Origin: Daphnia pulex
Taxonomy: Eukaryota; Arthropoda; Branchiopoda; Diplostraca; Daphniidae
Assembly (NCBI RefSeq): GCF_021134715.1
Contig: NC_060028.1
Span: 7,524,501 to 7,588,500 of the forward strand
Direction: 5' to 3'
Length of the DNA: 64,000 bases
Below, piece after piece: positions 22,801-51,825 of this stretch (positions within the stretch are counted from its first letter, which is position 1; each line of letters begins with the position of its first letter). Position numbers and translations under genes: made by a program. The notes below the pieces were generated by a model. The model was not told the DNA's origin, did no database searches, and saw nothing but the letters and a program-made list of their open reading frames with translations.

Positions 22801-24518
22801 AAGAGTGCACACACGAAAATTTCGGATTAGTTGCTTTAAAATATTATGGCGATTTTCAAAAGAGACGCCTTACGATTGTAGCCGATGAATCCTTTGGATA
22901 ATTCGTCGTCCGAAGTAGGCCCCATTATACTTCCCACAATAAAATTGGCCAACGCAACTATCAAAATACCCATGAACAGTAACTGAGCCTGCAAGGAGAA
23001 AATAAAATGTATGTATAATAGATTAATTACACACTTAATTGGGATCACCTACCTTGGCCTCCCATTCCATTCCGATGGCAACGATTGCGCCCAATACAAC
23101 AAGGGTGATAGAACCAATGATTCGAATATCATTGAGACCTCCATCAACAATCTCGATATCGAAATATTCCTTAAGCATATCGCTGAGCGCTTCACAGAAG
23201 CCAACAGTGTGAAGCGCGATGCCCATTGAATTAGCAAAGGCGAAGATGATTCCAATGGCCCCTCCGAATTCCGGACCAAGCGTGCGGGAAATCATGTAAT
23301 ATGTTCCTCCTCCTTTAATTTGCCCGTTTGTACTGATGGCCGACATTGACAAAGCAGTGAAAATGGTGACAGCCGTGGCCAGCAGGACAATCAAAATCGC
23401 TTGGAGAATTCCGGCTTGACCCACGACCCAAGAGAGGCGAAGGAAAAGCATGACACCCCAAATATTGAGTAAGCATCGGATGAAAACTCCTTGAACCCAA
23501 CCAAATTTGAAACCAGCAGCAACGATTTCCGCTTCAGAGTGGTCATCCTGTAATAGTAAAAAAATAGCAGTATAGGAATATTGTTCTACTGCTTTGTAGA
23601 CAGTATGTACATGCACAATTGATAAGGATTGGCTCTCATTTTCCCACGGGCCTTTTGGTTTTATCGTAATAAAATAAAAACTCCCAATTGCTAGCAAAGC
23701 ATATAAAATAACTACTTACAGAACTATATGGCAAATGGGATTAAACTTATTTCAAACCAAATGGGGTCAAAAACTAAAACTAAATCCTGGAAAGATAGGG
23801 CACAATGGATACATGTTCTGTTTGATACCGGTACTTATGATATTGTGTAATCATTGAGTAATACCGACTATTATTTACTTTCCTATGTAGAACAGTGCTT
23901 AATCCTGGTGTCAAAATTTGGCAGTAAGTTTCCATCGCTACAGAACTTCAAAGACTGATAAAGTGTACTTAGACAGCCTAATTAAATCATGTTTTTTGCC
24001 CGGCTTTTACGAATGCATTTAGCGCTCGGTGGTTTTCCGTTTAGAACAGTGCTATACAAATCTATCTACAGCAGTGAAATTTTTTTATCAAGCCCGGTAT
24101 AGCCAATAACTTTTTTAAAGTCTTTTTTTTTGTTTGCTCACTTTTTGTTCGTAAACCTCGCCAAGGTGTAGCTCATCCAGGGTTGCTCGGGATCCAATGG
24201 TCAGAAGATGAGGATGGTAGTTGTCCGGGGAAGGTAGAGTCTCGCGATTCAAATGGTCTTTCAAGCTCCGGGTCATCCGAATGCTGTCACGCAAGTGAGC
24301 CTTCTCGTCAAGCTTACCCGCATTAAGATGAATAGAGAATCGCCTAGTAATGTAAAAAAAAAAAATAATAATTTCCTTTTTTTATTATTTGTTTCTTTTT
24401 CCTCCTCCTGAATTGGAGATAATAAAAAATATTTTTCAAAGACAACGTACCCAACAGAGTGATCCTGAAGGCTTCCCTCTTTTCCACCTGATGACTGAGA
24501 CGGGTCCTGTTCATACAT
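19882..24518 (-). CDS. Na-(K)-Cl cotransporter, SLC12A1/2/3 family, copy 1 of 4
   Basis: Electroneutral cation-chloride cotransporter of the plasma membrane. Model: complement(join(19882..20017,20078..20189,20254..20414,20479..20703,20766..20886,20957..21144,21224..21465,21532..21743,21802..22059,22131..22572,22657..22796,22874..22988,23053..23547,24142..24343,24451..24518)), 1038 aa, intact. The N-terminus carries a GRFSIHLN motif (RFxI SPAK/OSR1 docking) and the phospho-regulatory [10 protein letters not shown] segment. TM1 is [19 protein letters not shown]3 has [16 protein letters not shown] with His203 at the NKCC1 Tyr383 position. TM6 is [18 protein letters not shown] (Thr327 kept), and TM8 is [16 protein letters not shown]. 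The soluble C-domain ends MPPFLLVRG...LTFHS. The His suggests NCC-like Na-Cl transport; that function is inferred. Intron 2 from the 5' end (594 bp) is longer than the others. Confidence 0.93.
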
Positions 24519-27947: not shown

Positions 27948-30900
27948 TTAAGAATAAAAAGTGAGGACGGATGCTTGGTTGCCACGGACGAGGAGGAAGG
28001 GTGGCATATTTGCCGTCAGTGTTTCCAGCCAGCTCATGTAGAGCGGGCCACTGACTGTTCCTTTCCGCGATATGGGCAGCGTCCTGGTTTAAAAAATGCG
28101 AAATATTTAAATCTTCATTGTGCAATTCTAAAGAAAAAAGGGACACTTACATTACGACGAGATTTGCATTGGTGGAGTTCTCCAATAACAATTCCCTCAG
28201 TCTCATGAAGTTGAACGTTTTCGGCTTCTGAGCCATCAGTTCCGATTCTTTAATCACTGGGACTATGGAATTGGATTCAGAAAATAGATTGAAATTAATT
28301 GAATACTAAATAGTTGACACCAATAATAACTCACCACTGGAATCTAAAATGCTCGGATCGTCGTCCTTGCGGACGAAATCGCGAGTCAGGGCGTCGAACC
28401 AGGACTTGGTTGGGGCGGAGGGAGGGTATGTCATATCAGGAATGACAACCACATCCGAAACGGGTATGCGGAATTTACCCAGCAAGAGTCTCATACTAAA
28501 AAACCATGTTAGAAATTTATCTAAAATCTTTAACCTTTTTAAATACCGCCGTATACCTTTCCTGTTTGCTACGCTGTTCCTCGTTGGTATCGGCCAGACA
28601 GAAAACGCGCAATTTGGAATTGGCCCAATTGGAACGCGTCGTCAAGATGTGGGGCAACAGCATAGAGAGTCCACCGTCGTCGTAGAGCCACCAAACGTCG
28701 ATGGTGCCGCGCTTCTGTTTGACACGGAAGCGGCAGATGCTGTTCTGCACTTCGGCAGGCAATTCATTGCCTTGTGGATCCCTTTGAATATTTAATAGCG
28801 TTATTTTTCCAATCAATTTCGGTTATTGAATTTGAATTCTTTTATCCATACCTGAACAAAACTCGAGACTTTTTCATATGCCTCTGCTCTGCGGAGGAGT
28901 TGGAGACAGAGGTGATGTTGGTCACATTGCTTTCCATTGACGACAATTGAATTTTGTTCCGTCTGATTTTGCCACCTCGAGTTTCGTCCAGTGTAAATTC
29001 GGACAAGGAGCTGTTCACACTTCCGGAAATGGCTATATAAGAATGTAATTGGGAAATTAAACACAATTTTTTTTTTCAAATCAGCAAATGATAATAGACT
29101 TACTGAATGGTGTCGCATTCGAGGAGGCAATGCTGCCTTCCAAAGTATTGGTGTATTGCGGATTGTCGATTCCTTCCGACTTTAGTTTCCCACCGCTGAA
29201 ATCCTCCATGCTGTCAAAATCTCCAATAATGCCAGTGTAATCGAGCCCTTCCTGAACGCGGAGCACCGCTACGGCGACGTGCATCTCCAGTGCAGTACTA
29301 TAACATAAATTGCCAAATTTCAAATTATTGAAATGTTTCGAACAAAATGTCAATCTTTAAACCGACTTGATGGCAGCGCAGTAATCGTCGATTTCGTTGT
29401 TTTTGTGAGTGCGCCATTCGCTTTGGTAGCCGAGTAGAAGAATGTTGGGCTTCATTTTGCCAACTCCAGTGGCCTGCAACAAGGCCCCGACTCCGCTGGG
29501 GAATGACAAGTTATCCATCAGCGAATAAAAGGCTTTCGTCTTGTGAGAGCGAAGCCAGTGAGATGATTTTTTGATCCGCTGCGAACGTTGTTTGTGGCTC
29601 TGCCGCTCCTACGAAGACAAATGTTTAGATAATCAAACGCCAATTCAACAAATAATGGTGTGGTTATACCTTAACGATGTCGCCGCAAACCATCAAAGAA
29701 TTATTCTTGCAGAGAAGGTAAGCAAAGTCGACGAGAGATGGTCGCATGTTTGGTAATCCGGTCATGACGAGAATTTGTGGCGTGTACGTTTTCACGTGTT
29801 CCTCAATGTTACTCAGCTGCTGAACAGTGATCAGCGCTGTTTTGTACACCTGCGCTTGTCCCGACGAACCCCAATTGACGTCTGAAGAATTCAGAAATTA
29901 GAATTTTATAGGGCACCTATGCAGCGGAAAATGGTTACCTGGCTTGCGATACTTGACTATAAGAAACAGGGTCATAACTACGGTGGATGTCACCAGAGCT
30001 GTCGGCCAACTGCACAAGAACATGGCCGAGACAGAAAGTCCGCAACCTAATAAACTCAGCCATTTGTTGTAATAGCGGAAAGTAGGGCGCCAGCCGACCG
30101 GCTGGATCAGATCGATGTGAAAGGTGGAGAAGTTGACGAGAGCGTAAGATGCCAAATAACAATTTGTGATCAGAGGAGCAATAATGTTGAGCTGGGCTAT
30201 ATACAAGTCAAACCACACGCAACACATTTTTAAAAAAGAAAATTCTAAATCTAAAATATTATCACGTATTCGATCTTACCGATGAGAACGCAAGCCAAAG
30301 CGATGAGGAAAGTCAGGATGTAAGCACGTAGGGGTTCTTGAGTCTTGCCGTAACCTTTAGCGAAATATTGCAAATGGGGAAAGAGTCGATCTTGACATAG
30401 AGCCTGGAAGACTTTCGGAGCCGAGACGAAGCAGGCCAGCGCCGAACTGAGGGTCGCGGCAAAACATCCGGCATAATTCAGGGGTCCGAAAGCCGAGACT
30501 AACGTCATTACTTGGAAACTGTTGTGCAATCCCCACTCGCAATCCTGCTCGGCGCAGATTTCGATGTAATCGTTGATGGTAGCCACTGTGTTGTTGTAGT
30601 TGGATGGGATTCCGGTGGCGTCGCGGAGTACAGTCGCTCCGGCAATGATGGCGAAAATGATGTAAGAAAAGGATGTGACGGCAATAGCCAATAAAGTTCC
30701 TTTGGGGATTGCCACTGAGGGGTCCTGAGTTGAGAGACATAATGGCAACATTTAGAGGTGATTTGAATTAAAAGCAAAGATTTGTTGTACCTTTAAATCA
30801 CCGGAGATGTTGGCTCCGGCCAAGATTCCTGTGGCTGCCGGGAAGAAAATGGAGAAAACGGAGAAGAAATTTTGTTGGAATCCGTCGAAAACACGGTAGT

Positions 30901-33710
30901 CGGAATAAAAGTTGGATGTCAACAATTCGACTAAAATAAAAACAAATCAGCATATTTCATATTTCATCAAGCTCATTAATTGCCTTACAATCGTAACCGA
31001 CGAATCCTTTGGAGAATTTGTCAATGTCAGACGGTCCCAAGAAGCTTCCCAGGATAAAGTTGGCCAACGCCACCACCAAAATGCCCATGAAAAGTAACTG
31101 AGCCTATATATTGCGGATGACGGAAAGGTCAATCAAAAACAATTCCGCAACCGCAAATAACCAGAAAAAAACTGTACGGTATGCACTTACCTTAGCTTCC
31201 CATTCCATTCCAATGCCGACGATCATTGCCAGGACAACCAGCGTGACGGATCCAACGATACGGATGTCATTCAGATCGCCATCAACAATTTGGACGCCCA
31301 GCTCTTCGAGCATGTCGTTGAGCGCTTCGCAAAAGCCGACCGTGTGAAGTGAGACGGCCACAGCGTTGGCTAATGCGAAAATGATGCCGATGGCCGCCCC
31401 GAATTCCGGACCAAGGGAGCGGGATATCATGTAATACGTGCCTCCTCCTTTAATTTGCCCGTTTGTACTGATGGCCGACATGGACAGAGCTGTTAGAGAA
31501 GTGACGGCCGTGGCCAGCAACACAATCAAAATGGCCTGGCCGATTCCGGCCTCGGCCACGACCCAAGACAGGCGAAGGAAAAGCATGACACCCCAAATGT
31601 TGAGCAAGCATCGGATGAACACGCCTTGGATCCAGCCGAATTTAAGACCACCAACCGCCGGCACTTGTCCGGAATTCCCACCCTAAATTTAAAAAAAATA
31701 AAAAAAATTCATTCCAAAAGAAAATTTAATTAGAATTAAGATGAAATGAGCGCTTAAATATAATTGGTCTTGGCGAAATGAGTAAATGACCAACGGGGAA
31801 ATACAATTTGACCACCACCGATTTCAAATATTTAACACACGGTATATTTTGCCAACGGCTCAGCTGGGAAACATTTTAGTGGTTATATTTATACCTCTGC
31901 GTTTTAACTTTTGTGGATAATTTTATACGGCACGCGCTCAAGGTGCCACGCAAAGTAAAAAAAAATAATAATAAAGAAAAATAATACCAGCATGATGGAA
32001 AAGAACTTGTGTGTGAACATTCATTTGAAACGCATGAGAAAGTCGAGTGGCTCGCCATCGTGCCATTTCGGGTAATTATGGCATCTAAGCAGCTTTTTAA
32101 CGGTAGATGATTTTAACCAGGTACCAATTTTCAGCGTGATTTTCTCAGTGTAATTGTTATTTTTACATTTCTTCGTCGCCGCCTTTATTATCGTTTCGGA
32201 ACTTTAGACGCACGATAGTTATCTTGATTCTTATTCTAACAGATTTAATATCCCTACACTTGATTATTGAAGGCGTTGTACTTGAAACGTGACTGTTGTT
32301 TGACCTTCACGTTTTATTGTACCTACATCATAAAAGCCATGTGTAGGCTAGTAAACGTAATTAAATTATGTGAGAAGGTCATATGAGATCACCCAGAGCA
32401 CCAAAAAAGATAATTAAACTGGGGCAAACGAATCGGTCGTTTACCCTCTATTTATTGCTATACGGCATTTAACATTTTAACGGAAATTGGGATAACGAAA
32501 TACTACATCTATCCACCTATATTCAAATATAAAGTCTCTCTGTTATATGCTATCGTCCAGCACCAGGCTCAAATCTAAAAATATCTTGGCTATACATGGG
32601 AAGTCCCCAATAGTTAAGTTAAGTCGGCGATGATCACTGATCGAATATAGTATATGAAGAAAGCCTTGGTTCTCCATGGTTTACCTTTCACGAGTCCTTG
32701 CTTGAATGGCTTTTGGCAATAAGAAAACTGAAAGTCTAAAAGGAAAAACCTTTCTGCGTTCTGTAATAGAATTTTCTCTTTCTAGGTGGACGACGTCCAA
32801 TACGTTGGATTATTTGCCGATCTTGTGGTTAATGACCGACGTGAACTTGTCCTCGTTCTGAATTCGTAAATGACAAAATTGCGCAAAATTGTTCTAATAA
32901 CTCGAAGGCTTTTTCTTCCCCCCGATTCTCAATTCAAAATAATAAGGTAAATTGCCTTTTTCTCAGAATTATCCATATTTTGAAACGCAATGGCCGAATG
33001 TGCAATTCTAATTCAATTGTCTTTTCGTTCATAAGAATCGGGGCGTTCGTAAAAGAAATGAAGAATTGAAATACCTTTTGAATGCCTTGTTGATGATCGG
33101 CACCGAGACGCAGCTCCTCGAGTGTGGCACGGTTCGCCACAGAGTGCGCTTGATAGTTGTCCAGCGATGGCAAAGTCTCGCGACTCAAATGATGTCGCAG
33201 AGGTCGATTGGTGCGGACGCTGTCGCGGAGATGAGCTTTCAAAGCATTTCCGTAGCGGTTCTGGTCAAGGACGGCCGGTAGCAGACCAACTCTGTAATTA
33301 GATAATTGCGCAGCATTCCATCAATCATTGCTCCAACTCCAGGATACCAAATGAGACAGGGAACAAAAAAATAAGTCAAACAAAAATATCAACCCTTTGG
33401 CGTGTTCACGAACGCTTGCGCTGCGTCCGTTGGCCGACGGACGAACAGGTTGAGACAAATTGATGTCGTCCATCGTGATGTAAGAGGAAGCGACGAATTC
33501 GGAACGGCTGCTGCCGTTGTTCGATTGCTGCTGGCCGTGATTGACCGACGCCCGGCGTCTCGGCACGTTATTGGCCACCATCATGTCGCTCGTGTCCAGA
33601 CGCTGGATGCTGAAGCGAGAGACCCGCTGCGGATGCTGGCGACTATCTTCCTCACCGTGATTCGGCATGACATTGACACTCCCGCCACCCAAGTGATGCT
33701 GATTCTCCAT
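27948..33710 (-). CDS. Na-(K)-Cl cotransporter, SLC12A1/2/3 family, copy 2 of 4
   Basis: Closest in structure to copy 1. Model: complement(join(27948..28083,28151..28262,28335..28495,28557..28781,28852..29032,29104..29297,29367..29608,29670..29881,29939..30196,30280..30724,30791..30930,30989..31103,31191..31682,33075..33291,33394..33710)), 1148 aa, intact. Its introns fall at the same places as in copy 1, and most exons have identical lengths. Exceptions are a much longer N-terminal exon and a 60-bp longer exon in the C-domain. The N-terminus has a VSRFSIQ docking motif and [15 protein letters not shown]3 reads [17 protein letters not shown] (His291 at the K+ tyrosine position), TM6 [18 protein letters not shown] (Thr414), and TM8 [14 protein letters not shown]. 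The C-terminus is [14 protein letters not shown]. The intron at 31,683-33,074 (1.4 kb) may hold regulatory DNA. One donor is the uncommon AA|GTCGGT (29,366). Confidence 0.93.
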
Positions 33711-36682
33711 GATTTATTACTGGGAAAACGATTGCTGGGATTAGTCCACGTTGGTATATGTAATACGGTAGGCCTATAAAATGACAAGTTGGGAAAATCG
33801 TGTATGGGCGATGTAGTTATAATAAGCACAGCAAAGTTCAGTCGATAACGTCGGCCAAGAAACGGGCCATCGTCTTGGACAGAAAATGGAGAAACATGTA
33901 ACGAAGGGGATCACACGGCGGATAAAAGAGAATTGGACTCCATTCCTTTCACTTGCTGGCCTTTTTATTGGATTGCGAGTCCTTGGGAAACCTTCTTGTT
34001 CGGTGCGAGCGCACTTTGAGAAACACTCTCTCTATTACGTTATTATAAATCGTGTTGCTGCCTCTTAGTTTTTTTCTCTCGCATTTATCACCTAGCGACT
34101 TGAACCGGTTTTTCTTTTTCTTTTATCCAAGTGGATGATGTACCAGTACGGTATTTGTTTTGTTATGTGTCTTCATCGGTAATCCACGCCTATTACATCC
34201 CGTAATTGTTTTGCCCCGGTTCTAACTAATAAGACGTGACATTTTTACCGTCATATTGTACATCCGGTGTAAGTTTGTTGTAATGCTGCCGGTTTCTAGA
34301 AGAGAAAGATGAGAACATTTGATTTGTTGACATCCGTTCGAGAGAGTTGGCGTTATAAAAACAAAACAAATGTATAATCAAAATCAAAACTATGCGGCGG
34401 AGAATGTGGAAAACAGATTTGCATGAGGATGATGACGTTCATGACCGATTTGTTATCGCTGGCGTTGCGACCTTCAACATTCAAGTAACTAGTTCTTGTG
34501 TTCTTTCAACTTCACTTGACATTCACACACCGCCAATAAACTACTTGCGTTATTCTCCCACTCTTGGTGTTCGAATATCAAATCTTTTGAAGTGTTTAGT
34601 TGCCCTTAGGAAAATCGGTTTACTGCAAACGAGTAAATCGAATATAATCGGTCAATTCAATCGATGTAGGTTAATGTCTTTATTATGCCATGTTTTGTGA
34701 CGGAAATTGACTTACTTAGAGGATAGTAAAAAACCCTGAATGTAGGCATTAAACAAGTTGTCAACAACTTGTCAAGAACAATTACATCGGTCGAAAAACC
34801 AAATAAGTTATTAGTTCATAGGCGAACTTGACCCACAATACCGTTCTTCTATCAATCTCTACCTCGTTTGCATACATCGGCATACATGACATGCAACGCA
34901 TGGCTTGCCAACTTACACGTCTTTGAAAAAATAAAATAAAAGCAACTTGAGGTCGCACCCTAAAGAAACTACCAGCACGTTTTTCGTTTTTACAACTGCG
35001 TGGGGGTTTCGCAACTCCCTGAATATATTCTGTTATTAAAATTACCTTCTCATAAACTCCATGCTTATTGCTTCAGAATTTTAATCAACATCAGGTCCGA
35101 GATTGAATAAACTCTCAAAATTGCGGTTCACATTTCAAAACTATTCAGACGGGATCTCCCCTATTTAATAACAGACCTCTCACATGTGTCTGCGTTCACC
35201 TAAATTGATTGGACTAATCCAGACAGACGGAATGTTGATGAACCTCATTGGAAAATATAGGCCTTAATTCTTATGTGTGTGTCTGCTGATTTATAGGTAA
35301 ATGCCTTGACCTAGTTTTTTTTAATTCATCCCCCCCCCCTCTCTAACTCCACCCAACGTTGTCTGTTTATAAGATTTGAACGCAAAGAATCAAAGCCGAT
35401 GAGTGATATAGACAATTTAGGTTATCGGGCTTTGGGGCTCGTTTATTAAGACTATTTAGCCAAACTTCGCATCCTGCTACTATCCATAAAAATCCCCATG
35501 TCCTGATTATACTTTCAGTGTTTTGTACCTTAGCAACATAAGCTGCTGATGACCCGAAGCCTGACAGATTAGAAAGATCATTTGGTGTACGGGTGTGAAG
35601 TAAATTCCACAAGGAAGTAAAAAGGTACAACACACTTACCAGAATCATGAATTTATTAGAGTCGTGAAAATTTTAAAGCCGGACACGACAAACTCATCAC
35701 ATGATGTAAACAACGGTTTGTTCAATACCACTGGTTTATTGCAGGTCTGATAACTATGCAGCCGCAGCTCTGAGAAACCGGTTCGCGCTAGATATTGGCC
35801 ACATTATAAATTGTTTTATCCAACCTACTGTACGACCCTGCAATTTCAATTTGGACATTGCAATTATTTAGGCATACACTTTAGAAATCTGGAAAGCCAG
35901 CATTAACATTTTTTCGAAAGTATTACGCAAAATGCGCAAATCACTTGAACGAATCAAATCTTTCTGAGGAGAAAACACGGACTTTCACTTGGCACTTATG
36001 TGTCATGTCTGGAAACAGTTTGTCGGCTTCCAAGGCTAGTTTGTTCTCCTTCTTTCTGTTCTAAATACCCACATGAATAATAGATTGTCCGCGGAAAATT
36101 CGCTCAAGATGCAGAAAAAATAAAATAAAATAATCCGCCAACAACGCGCAACGAATGATTAGGTTTTTTCCGGGTCTTATGGTCATATGGGTGAGTCTTT
36201 ACACGGTCGAGGTTTATTACTTACACCCTGACCTAAACGATGAGCGAAAAACCAGTCCGTACCAGGTGGTTTTTCCAAGCGAAAACTGGATACCTTTGCC
36301 AGCTGGCCCCGAGGAAAGATTTTTCAAAAATTGCCCGCCGCCGCCGCTGCCGTCGCCCATAGGCCGAGAGTTTATTGGCGGCCTTGGTACCAAGATACGA
36401 GAAGAACTTTTTGTTATTCATCCAGCCCAGAAGGAACGGTGAGTATATATACTGTATACTAGCTATATAGTAACCTTAGAGCGCATATACCGTTAGGACG
36501 AAGTTCGTTTATTTCTTTGTTAGTAGTGTGTGTATATATACGTATAATAATATTATCGCACGAAAAGAGACTGAAATAACTATAACAAGGTCACCGCAAA
36601 CAACTGAATTAACATTAGAGACCGAAGCAACTGAACTGGATTGTTCCGGTTTTGCTTTATATGATGTTCGGCTAATTTGGTG
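33711..36682. other. 3.0-kb gap between SLC12 copies 2 and 3
   Basis: This gap contains the upstream region of copy 2 and the 3' UTR of copy 3. Apart from the open frame at 36,155-36,442 (listed separately) I see no supported gene. The 102-codon frame at 34,392 lacks any recognisable feature. A C10 homopolymer lies near 35,330. Confidence 0.4.
36155..36442 (+). CDS. Weak candidate: orphan first exon of a secreted protein
   Basis: This open frame begins MIRFFPGLMVIWVSLYTVEV, which looks like a signal peptide. It continues through a Pro-rich stretch (NCPPPPLPSPIGREFIGGLG) with balanced codon use, unlike the surrounding AT-rich DNA. About codon 95 it meets a good donor, CG|GTGAGT, at 36,438. 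No second exon could be found before the 3' end of SLC12 copy 3 at 36,683, and I recognise no family. It may be a real lineage-specific gene, a relic exon, or chance. Confidence 0.25.
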   Translation: MIRFFPGLMVIWVSLYTVEVYYLHPDLNDERKTSPYQVVFPSENWIPLPAGPEERFFKNCPPPPLPSPIGREFIGGLGTKIREELFVIHPAQKER

Positions 36683-39600
36683 TTAAGAATAGAAGGTCAG
36701 AACCGAAGATTGGTTGCCTCGGATCAGCAAGAAGGGCGGCATGTTGGCGGACAAGGCCTCCAGCCAAGCCATGTACAGTGGGGCGCCAACAGTTCCTTTA
36801 CGGGGCATCGGCAATGTCCTTTAATTTTTAAAACCAGTATTTGATATTCGATCTAAAGGGTATTCATTTATATTTAAAAGTGGATTTGATCCAACTTACA
36901 TGACTACCAAACTGGACGACGAAGAATGTTCCATCAACATCTCTCTCAGCCTCAAATGGCGATCCGTCTTGGCACGTTGAGCGTTCATTTCAGTCACTGT
37001 ATGGAAACCAGATCAAAAAGTTGAAATGCGCGATGACTGATTTGAGCTTTAAGCGCGTTGTGCATTTACCTGGGAGTTGGTCACGGCCATAAAAATCCCG
37101 GATGAGGCCGTCAAACCACGCTCTTGTCGACTCTTTGGGAGCTTGCTTGACGTCTTTGATGACGGTCAAATCCGAATAAGTGATTCGAAATTTAGCCAAA
37201 AGAGCAGCCATTCTGTTATACAAATTAGTGATAATCAAGGATAAAGTTTTTCTTTTGAGTGTGTAGACCATTAGCGTTTCTTTTCTTTTTTTTTCTCGCC
37301 TAATTTGTTAATTACCCTTTACGCTCGTTCTCCAAATCGTCTTGTCCGGATGCGGTGCAAAACACGCGTAACCTGCAGGAAGACCAGTTCGATCGGGTGT
37401 TGATGATGTGCGGAAGTAAGAGAGTTAGTCCTAATAAATAACAATGTTGGGAAATAAGATCGGACAAGGTAACATTGCTCTAGATATTTCGAGGACGGCC
37501 AGTTGAATACTCTATATTATACCTCCATCGTCATACAGCCACCAGACGTCAATGCAACTTCTGCGTTGTTTACGTCGGAAGGCGGTGATGCAACTGACAA
37601 TATGCGTCGGGAGCTCTTTGCCATGTCGGTCCCTGTATTGGGTTGTAATCAGAAAAAATTGTATTAACAATTACCTTGTGATTATTGGAACAAAATATGT
37701 TATACGTCAAAACTGGTGGATCTAATTTGGACGATCGCTTTCGCGTTCGCCTATCCTGCCGTTCTGCTGGAGACCGGCTATCGTGATACTCCGCAGCTGG
37801 AGATTCGGGCACTGAATCCATGCTAGTTGTGCTTGCTGCATGATTATAAAAGTCTTAGAAATAAAATATCAAATGCGATTTGAACGGAATGTTTTACTTG
37901 TTGATGATGAACGATTCAGGGACGAACCCAATGTATTTAGAATATAGTCTCTATCTTCTAAATCAGTAAACAGTGACGTGCAATCTAGACCCTCTGGCGT
38001 ACGGAGAATGGCGACAGCTACTTGCAGATCAAATCCAGTGCTGTAATAAATTAATAAAAATGTAATAAGTATTACAAAAATTGGAGACTATTAGATCCAG
38101 TGATATACTGACTGTATAGCAGCAAAGTAGTGGTCCAGTGAGTGATTCTCGCAGACTTGCCAGTCATTTTTGTAACCGAGTAATAAGATATTGGGCTTCA
38201 TTTTTCCAACGCCTCCCACTTGAAGCAAAGCTGAAACTCCTTGTTGCAAGTTGACGTCGTTAATTAACGAGCAAAATCCATTGATTCTGTGCTTCCACAA
38301 ATATTCGTAAGCTTTTTTAATCGTTTGACTGCGCTCGTCGGATGAGCGCTGGCCCTAATTTGAATAAAAAGTTGAAGTTATATGATGTTCAGGTATATTA
38401 TTCCGGTAGAAACTCACTTTGACGACATTAGCGCAGATGAGCAGTGAATTACTCTTGCAGATGAGATAAGCAAAGTCGACTAGAGCTGGTCGGGTGGCAG
38501 GATGTCCGGTTAAGGCCAGAATTTGCGGTCGGTAGTTCTTGACGTGTTCTTCGACGTGGACCAACTGCTGTATGCTCGATAATGCCTCACTGTACGTTTG
38601 AGCCTGACTGGAAGATCCCCAGTTTACCTCTGCAAGTTGCAATATATTAAAAAAGATATTGAGTGTCATAAAACTTATTTCGTGCGCCATCAAAGTTTAC
38701 CCGGATTTCTGTAGTGAACGACGAGATAAAAGAAGAGGACGATGGCGATAGTGATGAGGGCTACCGGCCAGCTAATCAAAAACATGCCGACGACGCATAA
38801 AGCAGCTGTGAGTAAGCTCAGCCACATGTTGTAATACTAAAATTTGAAAAAGCAAATAAAATAAAATTTTAATTCAATGTCAAAACATAAACGCGGATTG
38901 ATTTTAAAAAAAAAGCTGATGTGTATATAAAATGCAATGTATAGTTCGCGCATAAAGATTGTTTCGTGACGCAAGCAACTTCGTAATCTGTTTCTTACTT
39001 CCCATTTCCAAATTAAGTAAACAGTCAATCTAATTGAAATTCGTTCAGCACGCCAGCTAACACAAACACACGCCATCTATACGAAATGGACAGAACATTC
39101 CCGCGCATACTGACACCAAATCAAATCAACAATTAAAAAAAAAGAAAACAACTAACAAACAAATAAAACGACAATTGCCCGCTACGCTATAGGATACTCG
39201 ATTAGCTCAGAGGTTTCCTGTACCTTAAAGGTGGGTCGCCAGCCGATTGGTTTGACCAGACTGACGTGAAACGTCGAATAATTCATGAGGGCGAACGTGG
39301 CCAAGAAAAAATTGGAAATCAACAGAGCGATCACGTCCAAATGGGCTATGATGAAACAAACAACACCGTCAATCCAAACTTATATTACTCCGAATGAAGA
39401 TATGAGGACTTACCGATCAAGACAAAGACGAGCGCTAGGATGAAAGTAAAAGCGTATGCTCTTATCGGTTCTTTAGCTTTACCATATCCTTTACCCAGAA
39501 TTCCAACCAGCCAATAAGGGTAAAGCTTGTCGTCGGCAATGACTTTCAACAGTTTCGGACAGGAGACGTAACTTGCCAGTGCCGAGCTCAGGGTGGCAGC

Positions 39601-42262
39601 GAAGCAGCCGGCGTAATTCAACGGGCCGAAACCGGAAATTAACGTCATAGCCTAGAGGTACCACACAAAAACATTAAATTTCATTAAATTAGAGGTTTGA
39701 TTGATTTCAAAATTAGATTTACTTGATAGTCGTAATAAATTCCATAAGTACAGTTGTTGGAGACGCAGTCCAAGTAAGTTCCGTTCCGCAAATCATCAAT
39801 GCTTCCGGTTGCTTTTGACAAATCAAAGTTTACCAAATCTATACCGGAAAGAATGTTTTCACTTTTGGTACTTAAATATTTTTACCTGCTCTTTTCATAG
39901 TGGCTCCACAAATAATGGCGACAATGGCATAGGAAACGCTCGTGATGCAGATGGCAAGGATCGTACCCTTGGGTATGGCACTATTTGGATCCTGATAGGA
40001 ATTAATTTTTTTTTATTTGTCTGTTACAGATAACGAATAAGAAATAATGAGAAAAATTAATTACTTTTAAATCGCCAGAAACATTAGCTCCAGCCAGGAT
40101 TCCAATGCCTGCCGGAAAGTACACGGAAAAAACGGAGAAAAAATCTTGCATTTGTCCGTCGGTGACTGTGTAACCAGGGCTCCAGTTTTCTCGGATGAGA
40201 TCCACTATAAACTCAAATCAAATAGTATCGTAAATAAAAATTGTTCATAAGGGATAGAAAGCTTAGTATAATCCCTACAGTCATAGCCAAGGAATCCCCT
40301 GGCCTTTTCTTTTTCAGAACTGCCTGGGCCCATGATACTCCCGACGACAAAGTTGGCCAAAGCAACCATTAGAATAACCAACATCACTCCTTGTGTCTGA
40401 ATCGCAAGTAAAAAGTGATCAACGATATAGTGGCTAATTTCCACGGTACGAATTAATGTAAATTATTACTTTCGCTTCGTACTTAGCCCCGAGCCCGCAA
40501 AGAGCGCAAACGGCGATCATCGTTATCTATGATTATTTAATCATTATAAAATATTATGAAATTTCTATGATTCGATTTTTTTTATTACCGTTCCTATGAT
40601 CCCTGTAAGAAAACCAGTTTAGAGATTATAAGTGATTATAAGGGTAGCCTATAAGCTCATAGTAAACATAAAACTTACGAATGTCGTTATCAGCGCCGTC
40701 AACGATAACGGCTCCACCGTAGCTTCTCATCAAATCCTGAATCGACTGGCAGAAACCGACAACATTTAACGAGGCGTTGATTGCATTGGCGATAGCGAAG
40801 ATAACTCCAATGGAACCGCCAAATTCTGGTCCTAAAACGCGACTCATTACGTAGTACGTTCCACCTAATAATTGAAATGTCATTAATAAAATTCAGGAAA
40901 AAATGTTATGTAAAGTTTGTGTATTTTTTAGCGTATTACCTCCTCCTATTTCACCGTTGGTAGCGATAGCCGACATGGAAAGAGCCGTCATTAATGTGAT
41001 GAAAGTAGAAATAGCTATGATGATCAATGTCTGCCCTGTTGTTTTATGACAAATCAATTTACTCTAATTATCAATTCACAATTAATTTAGACTTACAGAT
41101 TCCTGAAAGGGCCACCACCCAAGAGATTCGGAGGAAAAGCATGACTCCCCAAATGCTCAACATGTTGCGGATGAGGACTCCCTCGATCCAGCCGAATTTA
41201 TCACCAACTGGTTCTTGGATATCGTTAGCATCAGGATTGGCAAGCTGTTGTTTTCAAAAAAGGAAGTTTATTTGAAAGTGTATATCTTGTCTACGTTATA
41301 TAATCTACTCATGGTTTACGTTTGGCCTTCTTGTAATAGGTTCGTGCAGTTCATCCAATGTCGGCCGAGAAGGGGATCGCAGATTGAAGAAATTGCGGTA
41401 ATTGGCGATGCGCGGAACTGTTTCCGTGTTTGTCGACGTCGATCCCCTTCGACTTAAGTTCATGCTCATTCCCAGTCGCCTAAGACTGGACTGGATTCCA
41501 CGTCCAAATCGAAAGCTGTTTTGCGAGTTTGTATCGATCAACGACATGCGACGTGACGGGGGACCATTTACGGAATGTTGCTGCATAAAAATAAATGCAT
41601 TCCCTTTCGTTGAACACCGTTTGATAACAATTCATTTCAAGTTAATAATTATAGTTATACCTCCTCGGCTAACACAAATGCTTCGTTATCCATTTCTACT
41701 CCGGACGGAACTGTGGCTAGATTCGGTGGGAGGATGGCGGATCTTTTTCTTTGTCTCGAAAACTCTGTAGTCTAATAGTTAATTCAATTAGCATAAACAA
41801 CTGTTCATAAATTGTCTTATAACTTGAAATAATATTGCACCTCCTGTTGCTCTCCCGATTCTTTCAAGTCCTTTGATTCCTCGGATAACTCGAACGCTTC
41901 ACTTCCCATTTCTACTCCGGATGGAACTGTTGGGAGATTTGACGTAACAATGTTGGTCTTTCTTCTGTGATTAGGAACCTCCAACATCTAATAGATTAAA
42001 TTTTAATTTGTTTAAAATTCATTTCAGACTTCATTACTTTTAAAAAAGTTGGATTTTTATTGTCTCCAGTTACCTCATGTTGGACTACATTTCCCTGATT
42101 GTTGTTGTGAACGGTTTCAGTCGGGATGATTCTAAATGAAGCAAAATCGCTGGGCCTGTGCACATTTCCCGACGGAAGACTTGAGCCTGGCGGATCCACT
42201 TGTATACGAATACCACACTTATTGCTTTGATCACCAACCGTGATTTCTTCTTCTTCAGACAT
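36683..42262 (-). CDS. Na-(K)-Cl cotransporter, SLC12A1/2/3 family, copy 3 of 4
   Basis: Model: complement(join(36683..36818,36900..36996,37070..37212,37316..37430,37523..37632,37706..37835,37898..38040,38113..38354,38418..38629,38701..38836,39224..39345,39414..39651,39723..39811,39886..39991,40065..40204,40279..40396,40470..40526,40589..40602,40679..40864,40940..41035,41097..41244,41320..41580,41661..41771,41841..41987,42074..42262)), 25 exons, 1161 aa, intact. It has about ten more introns than copies 1 and 2, including a 14-bp microexon (40,589-40,602). TM3 reads [19 protein letters not shown] (Asn351 at the K+ tyrosine position). TM6 is [18 protein letters not shown] (Ile476 replaces the K+-site Thr). 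TM8 is [15 protein letters not shown]. The N-terminus has [12 protein letters not shown] but no RFxV/I docking motif. Two tandem N-terminal exons (41,661-41,771; 41,841-41,987) are duplicates. Start ATG is 42,262. Confidence 0.92.
41661..41987 (-). repeat. Tandemly duplicated N-terminal exons in SLC12 copy 3
   Basis: Adjacent in-frame exons encode [19 protein letters not shown] then NEAFVLAEE, and [18 protein letters not shown] then SEAFELSEE. At the DNA level they share the stretch around CCGGA.GTAGAAATGG. Copy 4 has one clear counterpart ([20 protein letters not shown] at 51,609-51,707). Confidence 0.8.
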
Positions 42263-43792: not shown

Positions 43793-43795
43793 CAT

Positions 43796-44730: not shown

Positions 44731-44754
44731 ATATGTAAAAATATTTGACAAAAA

Positions 44755-46240: not shown

Positions 46241-47228
46241 GCGATCGTGATGCCAGCAGTCGTCGGCGATGAATACAAATTTAGAATGAGGAGTGCAAAC
46301 AGAGAAGCTAGAAACTAGAAGCATCCATGATACGATTTCTTCTATTAAGTATCGATTACGTCCAAACAACCGTGCTTATTCGATTGACATTTGATTTCAC
46401 GTATTTTTGTTTTACAGAAAATTACGCAATCGTTTTAAATTTTTTTTCCATATTTTAAAAACTACTTGAGCTATTACAATTGCTTTCAAAGTGAATTGTT
46501 TTACTTTATTAATCTCAGGTGGGGCTGGGGGGAAATTCCCACACTCCTGTCAAATTCGCGCTTTCTTACCTAACCTATAACCAAACTCACAATGACGTCT
46601 TGTTCGGCTGTCAGCCATGAAAAAACGCGCCATAGACAATTTTGGAGAAAAAACAAAAAAGTAAGTGTTTTTGTGTTTTCCTTAGCTGGCACTGGCCGTG
46701 TTTACAATTCAGACATGATTTATGAAATGTAAATTTTTTTTTTTTTTTACTTCAGCATATCCCACATTTGTTGAATGTAATTTCATGCAAATGTTTGTGG
46801 TAATACATAAGTGGCAGTTTTGGATAGCAAATCAGTGTATCCAAGAAACAAATAAAGAGCTAATTATTAATTCCATTTTTTTTGTTAGTCTAGATTCTTG
46901 AAATAATTTTCTTACGTCACACAGTTATTAATTTAACGACTAAACTATATACAGGTAACGCAATGTCGCGACGGCGAAGTAGAAGAAGCTTTTACAATTC
47001 CACGTATTTTTACATGGTCAGTCACCCAGTTTGCGATATCTCAAACGATATGAAGACGGGGGAAGGTTTTTGGGTTTTTGCTGAAAACCTTAGAAAATGT
47101 CGATAACATTTCAGGTAACTAGTATTTGTTTCTTTTGAATTTCGAAATGCTTTTACAATTTTCCTAGAACAAATATAACAGCGAAAAGGTGATTTCAAAT
47201 TGAGAGAGGGGACTACAAGTTTCGTAGT
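46241..47228. other. Gap between the RING gene and SLC12 copy 4
   Basis: This gap contains the RING gene upstream region and the 3' UTR of SLC12 copy 4. A weak two-exon plus-strand frame (46,592-46,660 joined to 46,955-47,053, 55 codons) is discussed in findings. Nothing else is supported. Confidence 0.35.
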
Positions 47229-50200
47229 TTAAGCGTAGAAAGTGAGAACGGATGTTTGGTTGCCTCGAACGAGCAAGAAGGGCGGCATGTTGGCAGTCAA
47301 TGTCTCCAGCCAAGCCATGTACATTGGGGCGCTGACGGCTTCCTTTCGCGGCATCGGTAAAGTCCTATGGATATTGCGTCATGAAATTCAGAGGTGAATC
47401 AATGTAAAAATAAGGTTAAATAAGATACTTACATGACCACCAAATTGGAATCGGAAGAGTGGTCCACCACTAACTCCCTCAGTCTACAATGACGATCCGT
47501 TTTGGCTTGCAGGTTAAGCCGTTCATTTTCTGTAGAATAGGAAACAAATTAAAGCAAAAATTTCGTACTTAAATGTCAAACAAATGCAAGTGTACCAGTG
47601 AGCTCTTCACGCCGGATGAATGGGCGGACGAGTCCATCAAACCAGGTCTTGGTTGATTCTTTTGGCGGTTTGTTCAAATCGGTGATGACTACTAAATCAG
47701 CGTAGTTGATGCGGAATTTGTTCAATAAGGCAGCCATCCTACAGTGGAATCAAAAATTTCCCATCAATTTTAATCATTTCTAAAATTTCAATATTAATTA
47801 GAAACTAACCCTTCTCTCTCTTTCTCTACTTCTTCCTGGGCGTTCGCCGTGCAAAAGACACGCAGCTGACACGCTGACCAATTAGCGCGCGTGCTGATAA
47901 TGTACGGCAAGAGTAGAGTCAGTCCTATATTAAGATGAATAAGAGATTTGAAACAAATTTCTTAATTAATCAGTCGTCAAGATTTACCTCCATCATCGTA
48001 AAGCCACCAGACATCAATGCTTCCTTCCAGCTGCTTCTTCTGGAATCTGGTGATGTTATTGCAGATGTGTCTCGGCAGTTCATTGCCGTCAGCGTCCCTA
48101 TCAGAAATATTGAGTTAATAAGTCAATGTATATTGCGTGGGAGTCTCTGTCAGGAACTTACATCAATGTCATGTTCTTTTTCGATTTCTTGGCTTTCTTT
48201 GGGTCTTTCGATGTGTCTACGATATTCGAGCTGCCGAATGGTGAATCGCTGATGGTATTGTGTCTCTCCACATCGGGTGTTCCGGGTGGTGTATCCATTA
48301 CACTGGGGGGACGACTATCATCTCCTCCTCCCGAATGGAAGGGCTCATCCGTGTCACCTAAAACAGTGGAATAATCGAGCCCTTCCGATACGCGCAGGAT
48401 GGCAACACTAACGTGCAGGTTGAATCCAGCGCTGTAGTAAAATTGGGTACAGTATGAGTACAGTTGCTTTTGAATGCTGGCAAATATAGAAATACTGACT
48501 GAATGGTTGCAAAGTATTGGCTTAGTGAGTTTTTGTCGCAAACACGCCAGTCGTTCTTGAATCCGATGAACAAAATATTCGGCATGATTTTGCCGACACC
48601 AACCACTTCCAGCATGGCCGAGGTGCCACTTGGCAAGTCCACGTTAGCGATGAGCGAACAAAATCCTTTGATGTCGTTTCTCCGCAAATGTTTGTAAGAT
48701 TTTTGCAAAATCTCTCCACGTCTCTTGGTAGATATCTTTTCCTGTGTAAGTCCAACCAATAACGTTTAAATTGCATGATGACGAATCAAATGGCGTATGT
48801 GATCTTTTACTTGAACGACATTGCCGCAAACAAGCATGGAATTCTTCTTGCAGATGAGATAAGCGAAATCGACGAGAGCCGGACGGGACCTGGGCGGACC
48901 AGTGAGCGCCAAAATTTGTGGCTGATAGTTTTTCACGTGCTCCTCGATGTGAACCAGCTGTTGGATGCTGGTCAAAGCGTCTTGTAAATTCATTGCCTGA
49001 GACGAGGTACCCCAGTTGACCTCTATACAAAAAGGAATGATCGAGATTTTAATGATAGTGCAATTTTGTGAGGGTCCATAAGATTATTCCAACCTGGTTT
49101 GCGATAGAGCACAATGAAGTAGAAGAGGAAGACACAGGCCAATGTGATGAGAGACACTCTCCAGTCGATCATGAACATAATGGCGATGCAAAGGCAGGCG
49201 CAAAATAAACTCAGCCATTTGTTGTAATACTGTCAAAGACAATAAGAATAATTAAATCACGTAAATAATTCAAAGGTGCTAAAAATCAACCTTGAAAGTG
49301 GGGCGCCATCCAACGGGTTGGACGAGATCAACATGAAAACAGGCGTAATTCAAAAAGGCGAACGTGATGAGAAACAGATCAGAAATCAGAAGGGCAATCA
49401 TGTCCAGTTGGGCTGACAATCGAACGGAAAAGGTGAGAATAATAACATTTCTTTTCTTTAAGCTAATAAAATATAAGATGATCATTAAAACTTACCAATT
49501 AAAATGAAACCCAGTGCCAAGAAGAAAGTGAACAGGTAAGCAAGGTGAGGCTCGTTAGATTTGCCGTATCCTTTGGTCATCCAACCGACCATCCAGTGAG
49601 GATAGAGTTTGTCATCACCAATCACCTGGAGTAGCTTTGGACACGAAATGTAGCTGGCCAAAGCCGTGCTTAGCGTGGCGGCAAAACACCCAGCGTAGTT
49701 AAGGGGTCCGTAAGCTGAAATCAGCGTCATCAGCTACTCGTTAAAAAAAATCCACAATCGAAACGTTCAAAATTAAACGAATTAGTTAATCAAGAGTATG
49801 ATTGATAAATTTAAATCTTTCGAACCTGATAGTCATTGTAGGACCCGTAAGTGCAGTTTTTCGACACGCAATCAAGATAGGTGCCGTTGCGGAAATCGGC
49901 AATACTGCCAGTAGCTTGTCGTACAGTGGTTGCAGCGCACACAATAGCCACGATAGCGTAAGAAATGCTGAAATAATTTGAAATAAATTGAATTTCGAAC
50001 GTGTATAATTGCCAAACTTTGTGAATTAGTCTTACCTTGTAGCGATGATTGCCCAAATCGTTCCTTTAGGGATAGCAGCGCTTGGATCCTAAATTAAAAA
50101 TTTTAAAAACAAAATCAGTGTTTTAGATTTCGAATCAATCCTTTTCATCAAAGATCATTTTCGTGGCAACGACTTACTTTCAGATCTCCTGAAATGTTGG

Positions 50201-51825
50201 CTCCAGCTAAAATGCCGATTCCAGCTGGGAAGTAGACAGCAAAAACAGAAAAGAAATCTTGCATAATGCCGCCATTGAAAACGTAGCCCGAGTCCCAATT
50301 TTCTCGAATCATATCCACTATTTGAAAATGCGTCATTGATTTAAAAAATGCCGTGTGTAGAGAGAAATAAATCATACGTGAATATCCAATATATCCTCGA
50401 GCTTGAGAAATTTCCGTCTGAGGTCCAAGGAAGCTACCGACAAAGAAATTGGCAAGAGCAACGGCCAAAATCACCACCAGCATTTGTTGCGTCTGAATTG
50501 AAGAATTAACATTTGAATTACACTCATTTTAGATTCCACTCTTTTATCAACGATATACATACCAAACTTTCGTATTTTGCTCCAAGACCACAAAGACCCC
50601 AAACCAGGATCATCAGGATCGTGCCAAGAATCCTTGTGTCATTATCTCCGCCATCAACAATAGTGTATCCACCGTAATTTTTCATGGTGTCCTGCAGAGT
50701 CTGACAGAAACCGACCACGTTCAGCGAAGCATTGATAGCGTTGGCAAGTGCAAATAAAACACCAATCGAGCCACCCCATTCTGGACCTAAAATTCGGCTC
50801 ATAACGTAATACGTTCCACCTGAGAACGCAAACAAAAATTTGTCAATCCACATTCTGTTCGATTTCTCGTTTTACAGATGTAGTTATACCTCCTCCGATC
50901 TCTCCATTGGTAACGATAGCTGATGTAGACAGGGCAGTAACCAACGTAACGAAAGTCGAAATGCCAATGATGATAATTGTTTGCCCTGGTAATAAAATGC
51001 AATATTAGTAAAAATTGAAGGAACGTTTTCATTTTCCAAGATAAGTGGGTGTACTATACTTACAGATGCCAGCAAGAGCTACCACCCAAGAGATGCGGAG
51101 GAAAAGCATTACACCCCAAATGTTTAACATGTTGCGGATAAGGACGCCTTCGATCCAGCCGAATTTTTGACGATTATCTGTCGGTTCGTTATTTCCTACA
51201 CGTTCTGTTGGCTGTTAATTGTTGTCCAATTACAATTTCAGATGAAGTACAATTGTAAGAACCAGCAATTATGATTATGATTTTGCAAATAGCCAATCGC
51301 CCAATCTCAAATATACCTTATCCTCAACAATGGATTCATGGAGGTCCTCCATGGTTGGTCTTGCTCCCGTTGTCGCCATTTGGAACATGTTGCTGTAATT
51401 GGCTAACCGCGGGACTGCTTCATGTGTCAACCGTCTAGCTCCGGCCCCGAGTCGGCGTAGGCTTCCGCGCAATTTGGACTCCATACTTGGACCCATGCGT
51501 GCGTTTCCAATCACCGCCTGATGTCTCAAGATCTTTTTTGATAAATATAAGTATTCTTGGTTTTTGTTTTAACTATATTCCAAATTAAATTTGTTGAATC
51601 AAACTTACGTCATCAGGATTTTCGAATGCCATACTATCCATGCCAATTCCGGACGGTATAGTTGCTAAATTTGGTCGTACGGATGCCCTTCTCACGTTGT
51701 TCGAACCCTACAGACACATGGGAAATTTAGAAAATCAATTTGCCACTGTTATTGATTCACTACTAATTTGAATTTCTGATTTAAATTGCTACCCCTTCGT
51801 GACCGTCGAAGGCGTGATTATCCAT
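47229..51825 (-). CDS. Na-(K)-Cl cotransporter, SLC12A1/2/3 family, copy 4 of 4
   Basis: Model: complement(join(47229..47364,47433..47529,47596..47738,47810..47924,47988..48097,48162..48431,48500..48741,48811..49022,49094..49229,49291..49412,49496..49733,49826..49967,50036..50088,50178..50317,50378..50492,50563..50819,50890..50985,51064..51211,51317..51532,51609..51707,51793..51825)), 21 exons, 1039 aa, intact. It pairs with copy 3 by shared extra introns and by sequence. TM3 reads [19 protein letters not shown] (Asn231 at the K+ tyrosine position). TM6 is [18 protein letters not shown] (Ile355 for Thr). TM8 is [15 protein letters not shown], with Thr replacing the second Na+-site Ser. The N-terminus has [12 protein letters not shown] but no RFxV/I motif. 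The C-terminus is [14 protein letters not shown]. The first coding exon encodes only 11 residues. Confidence 0.92.

What the first reader, a model, noticed from the sequence alone, without database searches (positions are those of the whole stretch)
23209..50721. None of the four copies keeps the canonical NKCC potassium-site tyrosine
In NKCC1 the TM3 tyrosine (Tyr383) coordinates K+, and in NCC it is His. Here the aligned codons are His (23,209-23,211; 31,344-31,346) in copies 1 and 2, and Asn (40,764-40,766; 50,719-50,721) in copies 3 and 4. In copies 3 and 4 the second side-chain K+ ligand, the TM6 Thr (PAATG in copies 1 and 2), is Ile (PAGIG; 40,104-40,106 and 50,217-50,219). The codons fall at identical offsets within homologous exons, so the alignment is firm. 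Prediction: copies 1 and 2 behave as NCC-like Na-Cl carriers. Copies 3 and 4 form a separate, probably K+-independent type with an altered cation or Cl- site.
Basis: partly seen in the sequence, partly recalled or inferred. Interest (0 to 1): 0.75.

Follow-up and report, generated by a model that had tools for sequence, protein, structure and literature searches.

The report
Daphnia salt carriers with rewired potassium site
In what is most likely the genome of the water flea Daphnia pulex, a family of sodium-potassium-chloride carriers has duplicated and most copies have lost amino acids that hold potassium, in two different ways that resemble potassium-free salt carriers of fish and mammals, which makes them candidates for how a freshwater animal takes up salt.

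Summary
In detail: all six codons read as stated. Alignments without a gap up to the site put His (copy 1) and Asn (copies 3, 4) on NKCC1 Tyr383 and Ile (copies 3, 4) on Thr499; MAFFT gives the same and His for copy 2. In the same genome I found 13 NKCC/NCC-type genes, a lower bound: one canonical Tyr/Thr NKCC about 25 kb outside the window, three with His, nine with Asn+Ile. dN/dS is 0.06-0.14 in the 8 of 12 gene pairs where it could be computed; pairs with copy 3 or 4 were saturated. The His genes do not group with human NCC (AU p 1.5e-51), so their His, and a TM8 Cys shared with NCC, look convergent. The Asn genes also lose the TM10 Tyr of a chloride site and the outer gate Glu (9 of 9 each) but keep the sodium site. 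The same Asn+Ile pair is published for eel NCC-beta, a thiazide-resistant Na-Cl cotransporter. K+ independence is the best reading; whether copies 3 and 4 carry chloride is open. No function was measured.

The parts
19882..24518 (-). Copy 1: NKCC/NCC-type gene, 15 modelled exons, TAA stop; N-terminal end uncertain
   Evidence: Spliced alignment without internal stop (the aligner allows only GT-AG introns and penalises stops); best PDB match NKCC1, 882 bits
27948..33437 (-). Copy 2: NKCC/NCC-type gene, 15 modelled exons, TAA stop; N-terminal end uncertain (an open frame reaches 33713)
36683..41885 (-). Copy 3: Asn-clade gene, 23 modelled exons, TAA stop; N-terminal end uncertain
47229..51990 (-). 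Copy 4: Asn-clade gene, 20 modelled exons, TAA stop; N-terminal end uncertain
23209..23211 (-). Copy 1 TM3 His at NKCC1 Tyr383 / NCC His234
31344..31346 (-). Copy 2 TM3 His at NKCC1 Tyr383 / NCC His234
40764..40766 (-). Copy 3 TM3 Asn at NKCC1 Tyr383
50719..50721 (-). Copy 4 TM3 Asn at NKCC1 Tyr383
40104..40106 (-). Copy 3 TM6 Ile at NKCC1 Thr499
50217..50219 (-). Copy 4 TM6 Ile at NKCC1 Thr499
39293..39295 (-). Copy 3 TM10 Phe at NKCC1 Tyr686 (NCC Tyr540, hydroxyl of the Cl2 site)
   Evidence: role from PMC9645730
49360..49362 (-). Copy 4 TM10 Phe at NKCC1 Tyr686
40746..40748 (-). Copy 3 Gln at extracellular gate Glu389
   Evidence: role from PMC9117670
50701..50703 (-). Copy 4 Gln at extracellular gate Glu389
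22282..22284 (-). Copy 1 TM8 Cys at NCC Cys472 (thiazide pocket); Ser in NKCC1
   Evidence: role from PMC12365235
30431..30433 (-). Copy 2 TM8 Cys at NCC Cys472
40589..40602 (-). Copy 3 micro-exon of 14 nt after TM3
   Evidence: same exon returned with two other seed proteins and a higher intron penalty

Best explanation
The four copies are intact-looking members of the Na-dependent branch of the SLC12 family that no longer hold K+ in the central cation site. Copies 1 and 2 (and L005) replaced the TM3 Tyr by His and a TM8 Ser by Cys, and most likely work as Na-Cl cotransporters, an arthropod counterpart of NCC reached independently. Copies 3 and 4 (and seven more genes) lost both K+ side-chain ligands (Tyr to Asn, Thr to Ile), the Tyr hydroxyl of the second Cl- site and the gate Glu, but kept the Na+ site; they most likely move Na+ without K+, with weakened or no coupling to Cl-. 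Shown: the residues, the clades, constraint on the gene pairs that could be measured, a canonical NKCC nearby. Inferred: ion selectivity, stoichiometry, and a role in freshwater salt uptake.
For: Residue tables: His383, Thr499, Tyr686, Glu389 in copies 1, 2 and L005; Asn383, Ile499, Phe686 in 9 of 9 Asn genes, Gln (8) or Ser (1) at 389; Na+ site Ser613 kept in 9 of 9, Ser614 in 7 of 9 (Thr in copy 4 and L010). dN/dS 0.057-0.141 in 8 of 12 pairs tried, the other 4 saturated. His genes apart from human NCC: AU p 1.5e-51 with KCC outgroup, 4.8e-6 without. A canonical Tyr/Thr/Tyr NKCC (L004) exists in the same cluster. Literature passages: NKCC1 Tyr383 and Thr499 hydroxyls bind K+ and Y383F is inactive (PMC7035313); eel NCC-beta has Asn and Ile at these two places and is a Na-Cl cotransporter (PMC12365235, PMC10043231); Drosophila CG31547 and mosquito aeCCC2 gave no added Rb+ uptake (PMC6468792); D. 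magna neonates show thiazide- and bumetanide-sensitive Na+ uptake, adults bumetanide- but not thiazide-sensitive (Bianchini and Wood 2008 as cited in PMC6114146).
Against: No transport data for any of these proteins. NCC H234Y does not transport K+, so this position does not by itself decide K+ use (the His234 mutants were also less stable). Copies 1, 2 and L005 have Thr at S533 and Tyr at F536, and S533T badly impairs human NCC. H234A and T352A also badly impair NCC, so losing these side chains can simply break a carrier. Of 190 TM-domain columns invariant in the six other N(K)CCs, 21 changed in all nine Asn genes, so the site changes sit within general divergence and are not enriched by count. 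No dN/dS could be computed for pairs with copy 3, copy 4 or L004 (saturated). CG31547 has been called transport-inactive (PMC5491111). Orthology of the Asn genes with aeCCC2/CG31547 was not tested: no insect sequence was available here.
Confidence: 0.6

Rival explanations
1. Copies 3 and 4 work like eel NCC-beta: a K+-independent, thiazide-resistant Na-Cl cotransporter, possibly electrogenic.
For: Identical Asn+Ile pair in eel NCC-beta; human NCC(H234N) and NCC(T352I) could be completely inhibited by polythiazide, which implies that they transport; eel NCC-beta is described as an electrogenic Na-Cl cotransporter (PMC10043231).
Against: The Daphnia genes also lose the TM10 Tyr; NCC Y540A nearly abolishes transport, though Phe is milder than Ala. 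Whether eel NCC-beta keeps that Tyr was not seen. Eel has Phe at 472, copies 3 and 4 have Ser. NCC T352A is badly impaired.
Confidence: 0.4
2. Copies 3 and 4 work like mosquito aeCCC2: a Na+/Li+ selective, Cl- independent, diuretic-insensitive pathway with channel-like behaviour.
For: Loss of K+ ligands, of the Cl- site hydroxyl and of the gate Glu with the Na+ site kept is what a Cl- independent Na+ pathway could need; NCC E240A favours the outward-facing state; aeCCC2 oocytes show Li+ but not Rb+ uptake, Cl- independent, conductance Na+ = Li+ > K+.
Against: The aeCCC2 authors could not exclude activation of an endogenous oocyte channel. Orthology untested. Cl- backbone ligands (Gly-Val-Met, Gly-Ile-Leu) are intact in copies 3 and 4, as is the inner gate Lys624.
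Confidence: 0.35
3. Some of the copies transport nothing and act as regulators or dimer partners of the canonical NKCC (L004).
For: CG31547 called transport-inactive; key ligand losses; the aeCCC2 authors also raise non-transport roles.
Against: The Na+ site is kept in all nine Asn genes, and dN/dS is low in the five Asn-gene pairs that could be measured (0.057-0.141), though none of these includes copy 3 or 4.
Confidence: 0.2
4. Copies 1 and 2 still carry K+ or NH4+ (NKCC-like) despite His.
For: Thr499, Tyr686 and the backbone ligand positions are kept; Na+ uptake of D. magna neonates and adults is bumetanide-sensitive.
Against: Even Tyr383Phe inactivates NKCC1; His is the state of K+-independent NCC; a Tyr NKCC exists elsewhere in the genome that could explain the NKCC pharmacology.
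Confidence: 0.15

Closest known systems
Vertebrate NCC (SLC12A3)
   Same: Copies 1, 2 and L005: His at 234, Thr at 352, Cys at 472, Na+ site, Cl- site residues, gate Glu; Gly230 in copy 1 and L005
   Different: Tree places them with Daphnia NKCC and not with NCC (AU p 1.5e-51); Thr at S533, Tyr at F536, Leu at M233, Ala at S350, Ala at 230 in copy 2
Eel NCC-beta (SLC12A10 type, that name recalled)
   Same: Asn at 234 and Ile at 352, as in all nine Asn genes
   Different: Eel has Ala at 230 and Phe at 472; the Daphnia genes have Asn or Asp at 230 and Ser, Asp or Glu at 472; vertebrate lineage
Insect CCC2/3 clade (Aedes aeCCC2, aeCCC3; Drosophila CG31547)
   Same: Arthropod NKCC paralogues, said to diverge in TM3; no added Rb+ uptake for aeCCC2 and CG31547
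   Different: Residues of the insect proteins were not available, so identity of the site is unknown
NKCC1 (SLC12A2)
   Same: Overall homology, Na+ site, Cl- backbone ligand positions; best PDB match of copies 1, 3 and 4
   Different: Tyr383 replaced in 12 of 13 Daphnia genes, Thr499 in 9, Tyr686 in 9, Glu389 in 9 of 13

Membership tests
SLC12, Na-dependent branch (NKCC/NCC) | Homology over TM and C-terminal domains to NKCC1/NCC | tested here: met
   phmmer 882 bits for copy 1 from TM1 to the end; 555 and 510 bits for copies 3 and 4, queries cut to the TM domain and start of the C-terminal domain; copy 2 by MAFFT and tree
SLC12, Na-dependent branch (NKCC/NCC) | Two Ser of the Na+ site on TM8 | tested here: met
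   Ser613/Ser614 in copies 1-3; Ser/Thr in copy 4, so only one of the two Ser there
NKCC (K+ coupled) | TM3 Tyr383 | tested here: not met
   His, His, Asn, Asn in copies 1-4
NKCC (K+ coupled), copies 1 and 2 | TM6 Thr499 | tested here: met
   Thr at 22696-22698 and 30830-30832
NKCC (K+ coupled), copies 3 and 4 | TM6 Thr499 | tested here: not met
   Ile
NKCC (K+ coupled) | Bumetanide-sensitive K+-dependent transport | not testable with these tools
   Needs a flux assay
NCC (SLC12A3 clade) | Groups with NCC in a tree | tested here: not met
   AU p 1.5e-51 and 4.8e-6 against His genes with human NCC; one NCC sequence on a long branch
NCC (SLC12A3 clade) | His at position 234 | tested here: met
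   Copies 1, 2 and L005 only; Asn in copies 3 and 4
NCC (SLC12A3 clade) | Thiazide-sensitive Na-Cl transport | not testable with these tools
   Pocket residues N149, N227, H234, T352, C472 are present in copies 1 and 2, but S533T and F536Y differ
Insect CCC2/3 clade (aeCCC2, CG31547) | Groups with insect CCC2/3 in a tree | not tested
   No insect sequences in the collections at hand
Eel NCC-beta type | Asn234 and Ile352 pair | tested here: met
   9 of 9 Asn genes; eel residues from PMC12365235
Eel NCC-beta type | Phe at 472 | tested here: not met
   Ser in copies 3 and 4; Asp or Glu in the other seven

The most novel reading that the evidence does not exclude
One freshwater crustacean has recoded the K+ site of its NKCC twice: once to His+Cys, an independently evolved NCC, and once to Asn+Ile+Phe with a weakened gate, giving a nine-gene set of Na+ pathways that need neither K+ nor tight Cl- coupling. 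In seven of these nine genes acidic residues appear at NCC 230 and 472 in the pore pocket (Asp379; Asp or Glu618), and they may act as fixed charges that replace transported Cl-, as is recalled for LeuT Glu290 against SERT. Together they would be the missing molecular route of Na+ uptake in Daphnia.
Probability: 0.25. Interest if true: 0.8.

Novelty: new variant of a known kind. Interest (0 to 1): 0.58.

Why it matters
A 2022 review (PMC9644288, passages) states that the apical Na+ transporter of freshwater crustaceans is still uncertain, lists an NCC-type route as an additional model for some fish relative to insects and crustaceans, and sees as yet no evidence for apical NKCC uptake in fresh water. 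D. magna nevertheless shows thiazide-sensitive Na+ uptake in neonates (as cited in PMC6114146, passages), with no gene named in the passages read. The His genes are direct candidates. The Asn genes, in nine natural versions with graded changes, are a ready-made set for testing which residues of the CCC pore decide K+ use, Cl- coupling and electroneutrality.

Tried and rejected
Displaced rather than replaced Tyr: rejected, the alignments have no gap from TM1 past the TM3 site.

Pseudogene: unlikely for the 13 genes (no stops in the models, low dN/dS in 8 of 12 pairs). The absence of non-GT-AG introns proves nothing, because the aligner allows only GT-AG; stops were penalised, not forbidden. All models were guided by copy 1 or a relative, so exon choice leans towards the homologous reading. 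A further copy-2-like fragment on C12 (L013) carries in-frame stops and is left out of all counts. The L008 model has an unclear TM2-TM3 junction. The models of L008, L009 and L010 end short of a stop codon. N-terminal ends are uncertain throughout.

His genes as true NCC orthologues: rejected by the AU tests, with one human NCC on a long branch and a very long KCC branch. L004 with human NKCC1 apart from the other Daphnia genes is rejected too (p 2e-11). A clade of L004 with the His genes is not rejected (p 0.10), so the order of the Tyr-to-His and Tyr-to-Asn changes is open.

Enrichment of site changes over background in the Asn genes: not found by simple count (21 of 190 columns invariant in the other N(K)CCs changed; 11 of 109 if KCC is added). 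For the His genes, 8 of 34 fixed changes match NCC, against 3 of 24 for the Asn genes; no test was run on this difference, and the point rests on the two pocket positions.

Structure prediction and fold search: not run. Papers not held: PMC9359660, PMC5077186, PMC2806154. The PF00324 search of the genome did not complete.
Full report
What was checked. The six codons named in the finding read exactly as stated. No internal stops occur and each of the four models is followed by TAA. Copies 1, 3 and 4 match human NKCC1 best in the PDB. Alignments without gaps from TM1 past the site put His or Asn on Tyr383; copy 2 was placed with MAFFT. So the Tyr is replaced and not displaced. TM6 Thr499 is kept in copies 1 and 2 and is Ile in copies 3 and 4.

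The genome-wide frame. The window is C12:7524501-7588500 of a genome of 133,188,837 bases in 13 contigs. D. pulex is given as 133.2 Mb (assembly KAP4; PMC12926508, passages); with 12 chromosomes plus a mitochondrion recalled, I take the organism to be Daphnia pulex, an inference. Searches with PF03522 (64 candidates scored) and with the L004 TM domain (81 of 97 candidates scored), and models of the loci fetched, give 13 NKCC/NCC-type genes: L004 with Tyr; copies 1, 2 and L005 (contig C3) with His; copies 3, 4 and seven genes on C7 and C2 (L006-L012) with Asn. These are lower bounds, as the tool says. The one full KCC gene found, on C1, has Tyr and Thr at the two places. L004 lies on the same strand of C12, with matches between 7495146 and 7499336, about 25 kb outside the window and about 45 kb from copy 1, so the five genes found in that stretch of C12 hold all three types.

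The site in detail (roles from papers). L004 has the same ion-ligand and gate residues as NKCC1; among the positions listed it differs at 384, 385 and 493. The His genes keep Thr499, Tyr686, gate Glu389 and the Na+ site, and share with NCC both His234 and Cys472; copy 1 and L005 also have Gly230. They differ from NCC at 533 (Thr) and 536 (Tyr), among others. The Asn genes have Asn383, Ile499 and Phe686 in 9 of 9, Gln (8) or Ser (1) at 389, and Ser at 298 in 8 of 9 (Asn in copy 4). Position 379 is Asn in copies 3 and 4 and Asp in seven; 618 is Ser in copies 3 and 4 and Asp or Glu in seven. The inner gate Lys624 is kept in copies 3 and 4 and is Ala or Glu in seven. Ser613 of the Na+ site is kept in 9 of 9; 614 is Ser in seven and Thr in two (copy 4, L010). 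In NKCC1, Tyr383 and Thr499 hydroxyls bind K+ and Y383F is inactive (PMC7035313, passages). In NCC, Tyr540 (NKCC1 Tyr686) binds the second Cl-, Y540A nearly abolishes transport, and H234Y abolishes transport, with loss of protein stability, and is reported not to enable K+ transport (PMC9645730, passages). The Arg307-Glu389 salt bridge closes the outer gate and Asp510-Lys624 the inner one (PMC9117670, passages). NKCC1 Ala379 changed to Cys, Leu or Trp loses function, and to Gly or Ser lowers ion affinity (PMC4301019, passages).

Background. 221 of 520 TM-domain columns are invariant in the nine Asn genes, and 21 of 190 columns that are invariant in the other six N(K)CCs have changed in all nine. 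The site changes are therefore part of a broader divergence; their weight comes from where they are and from what is kept beside them.

Descent and selection. With site columns removed, the His genes (100/100) and the Asn genes (100/100) are each one clade. The Daphnia genes are separated from human NKCC1 and NCC at 100/100 without KCC, but only 74/66 with the long KCC branch. Holding the His genes with human NCC is rejected (p 1.5e-51 with KCC, 4.8e-6 without). Since KCC, NKCC1 and L004 have Tyr, the Daphnia His is most simply an independent change. Whether His and Asn genes share one Tyr-less ancestor is undecided (89/93 and 94/94 for their grouping in the two trees; L004 with His genes p 0.10; L004 with Asn genes p 0.025). 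Of 12 pairs tried, dN/dS is 0.057 to 0.141 in the eight with usable dS; in the other four (copy 3 with copy 4, copy 3 with L011, L004 with copy 1, L004 with copy 3) dS is saturated. Constraint is thus measured for copies 1 and 2 and for the C2/C7 relatives of copies 3 and 4, but not for copies 3 and 4 themselves.

How it most likely works. Copies 1 and 2: Na-Cl cotransport without K+, by the NCC logic of a His in the cation site, inferred. Copies 3 and 4: Na+ transport without K+. Two published precedents point different ways on Cl-. Eel NCC-beta carries the identical Asn+Ile pair and is a thiazide-resistant Na-Cl cotransporter (PMC12365235, passages), described as electrogenic; one earlier report of thiazide sensitivity in eel rectal sacs is noted in the same review (PMC10043231, passages). 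Mosquito aeCCC2, from a clade said to diverge in TM3, gives Li+ but not Rb+ uptake, independent of Cl- and of the inhibitors tried, with a Na+/Li+ conductance whose direct origin is unproven (PMC6468792, parts 1-3 of 4 read). Loss of the Tyr686 hydroxyl and of the gate Glu leans toward the second; intact backbone Cl- ligand positions lean toward the first. In the seven C2/C7 genes the acidic residues at 379 and 618 lie at positions that line the thiazide pocket of NCC and could stand in for Cl-; this is a hypothesis resting on a recalled analogy (LeuT Glu290 against SERT).

Setting. A review (PMC9644288, passages) calls the apical Na+ transporter of freshwater crustaceans uncertain. D. magna neonates show thiazide- and bumetanide-sensitive Na+ uptake, adults bumetanide- but not thiazide-sensitive uptake (Bianchini and Wood 2008, as cited in PMC6114146, passages). 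The His genes could fit the first and L004 the second. No expression data were seen, and this link is inference.

What is known and what is not. I found no report of these Daphnia genes or residues in the listings of ten literature searches (open-licence papers only; one search listed 20 of 215), nor in the passages read of a Daphnia gene-family paper (PMC12102780) and an arthropod SLC survey (PMC7487162). The survey counts SLC12 among the stable families, though its table also lists SLC12 as differing between taxonomic groups. Most subscription papers are not held. The K+-site Tyr/His contrast and the eel Asn/Ile pair are already known. Not seen elsewhere in what I read are the independent His+Cys in an arthropod, the nine-gene Asn/Ile/Phe clade with altered gates, and the canonical NKCC beside them.

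Noticed in passing
G000:C12:7495146-7499336 (L004), outside the window: Canonical NKCC with Tyr383, Thr499, Tyr686 on the same strand and chromosome as the four copies, about 25 kb beyond the window edge.
   Followed up: yes
L013 (C12:5490000-5499900): Copy-2-like fragment of an SLC12 gene with in-frame stops, a likely pseudogene.
   Followed up: partly
40589-40602: 14-nt micro-exon in copy 3, between two short introns that the copy 4 model lacks; could be recent intron gain.
   Followed up: partly
L006-L012, NKCC1 positions 379, 618 and 624: Seven Asn genes have acidic residues at 379 and 618 and lack the inner gate Lys624; copies 3 and 4 do not share this.
   Followed up: partly
56917-57390: RING-finger protein end (PF13920) that resembles the Mdm2 C-terminal RING from memory.
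   Followed up: no
33321-33713 and near 24342: RFSI motifs in the N-terminal regions of copies 2 and 1, like SPAK/OSR1 docking motifs (recalled).
   Followed up: no
L016 and L017 (C5:7494600-7514500): Two neighbouring loci with nearly identical SLC12A9-like translations (name recalled), a recent tandem duplication or an assembly duplicate.
   Followed up: no
L015 (C10:6873500-6883400): Partial KCC-like sequence, possibly a decayed copy of the KCC gene on C1.
   Followed up: no
L010 and L018 (C2:12684500-12696900): Asn-clade gene with an intron of about 7 kb before its last transmembrane part; my first fetched stretch missed its first half.
   Followed up: partly
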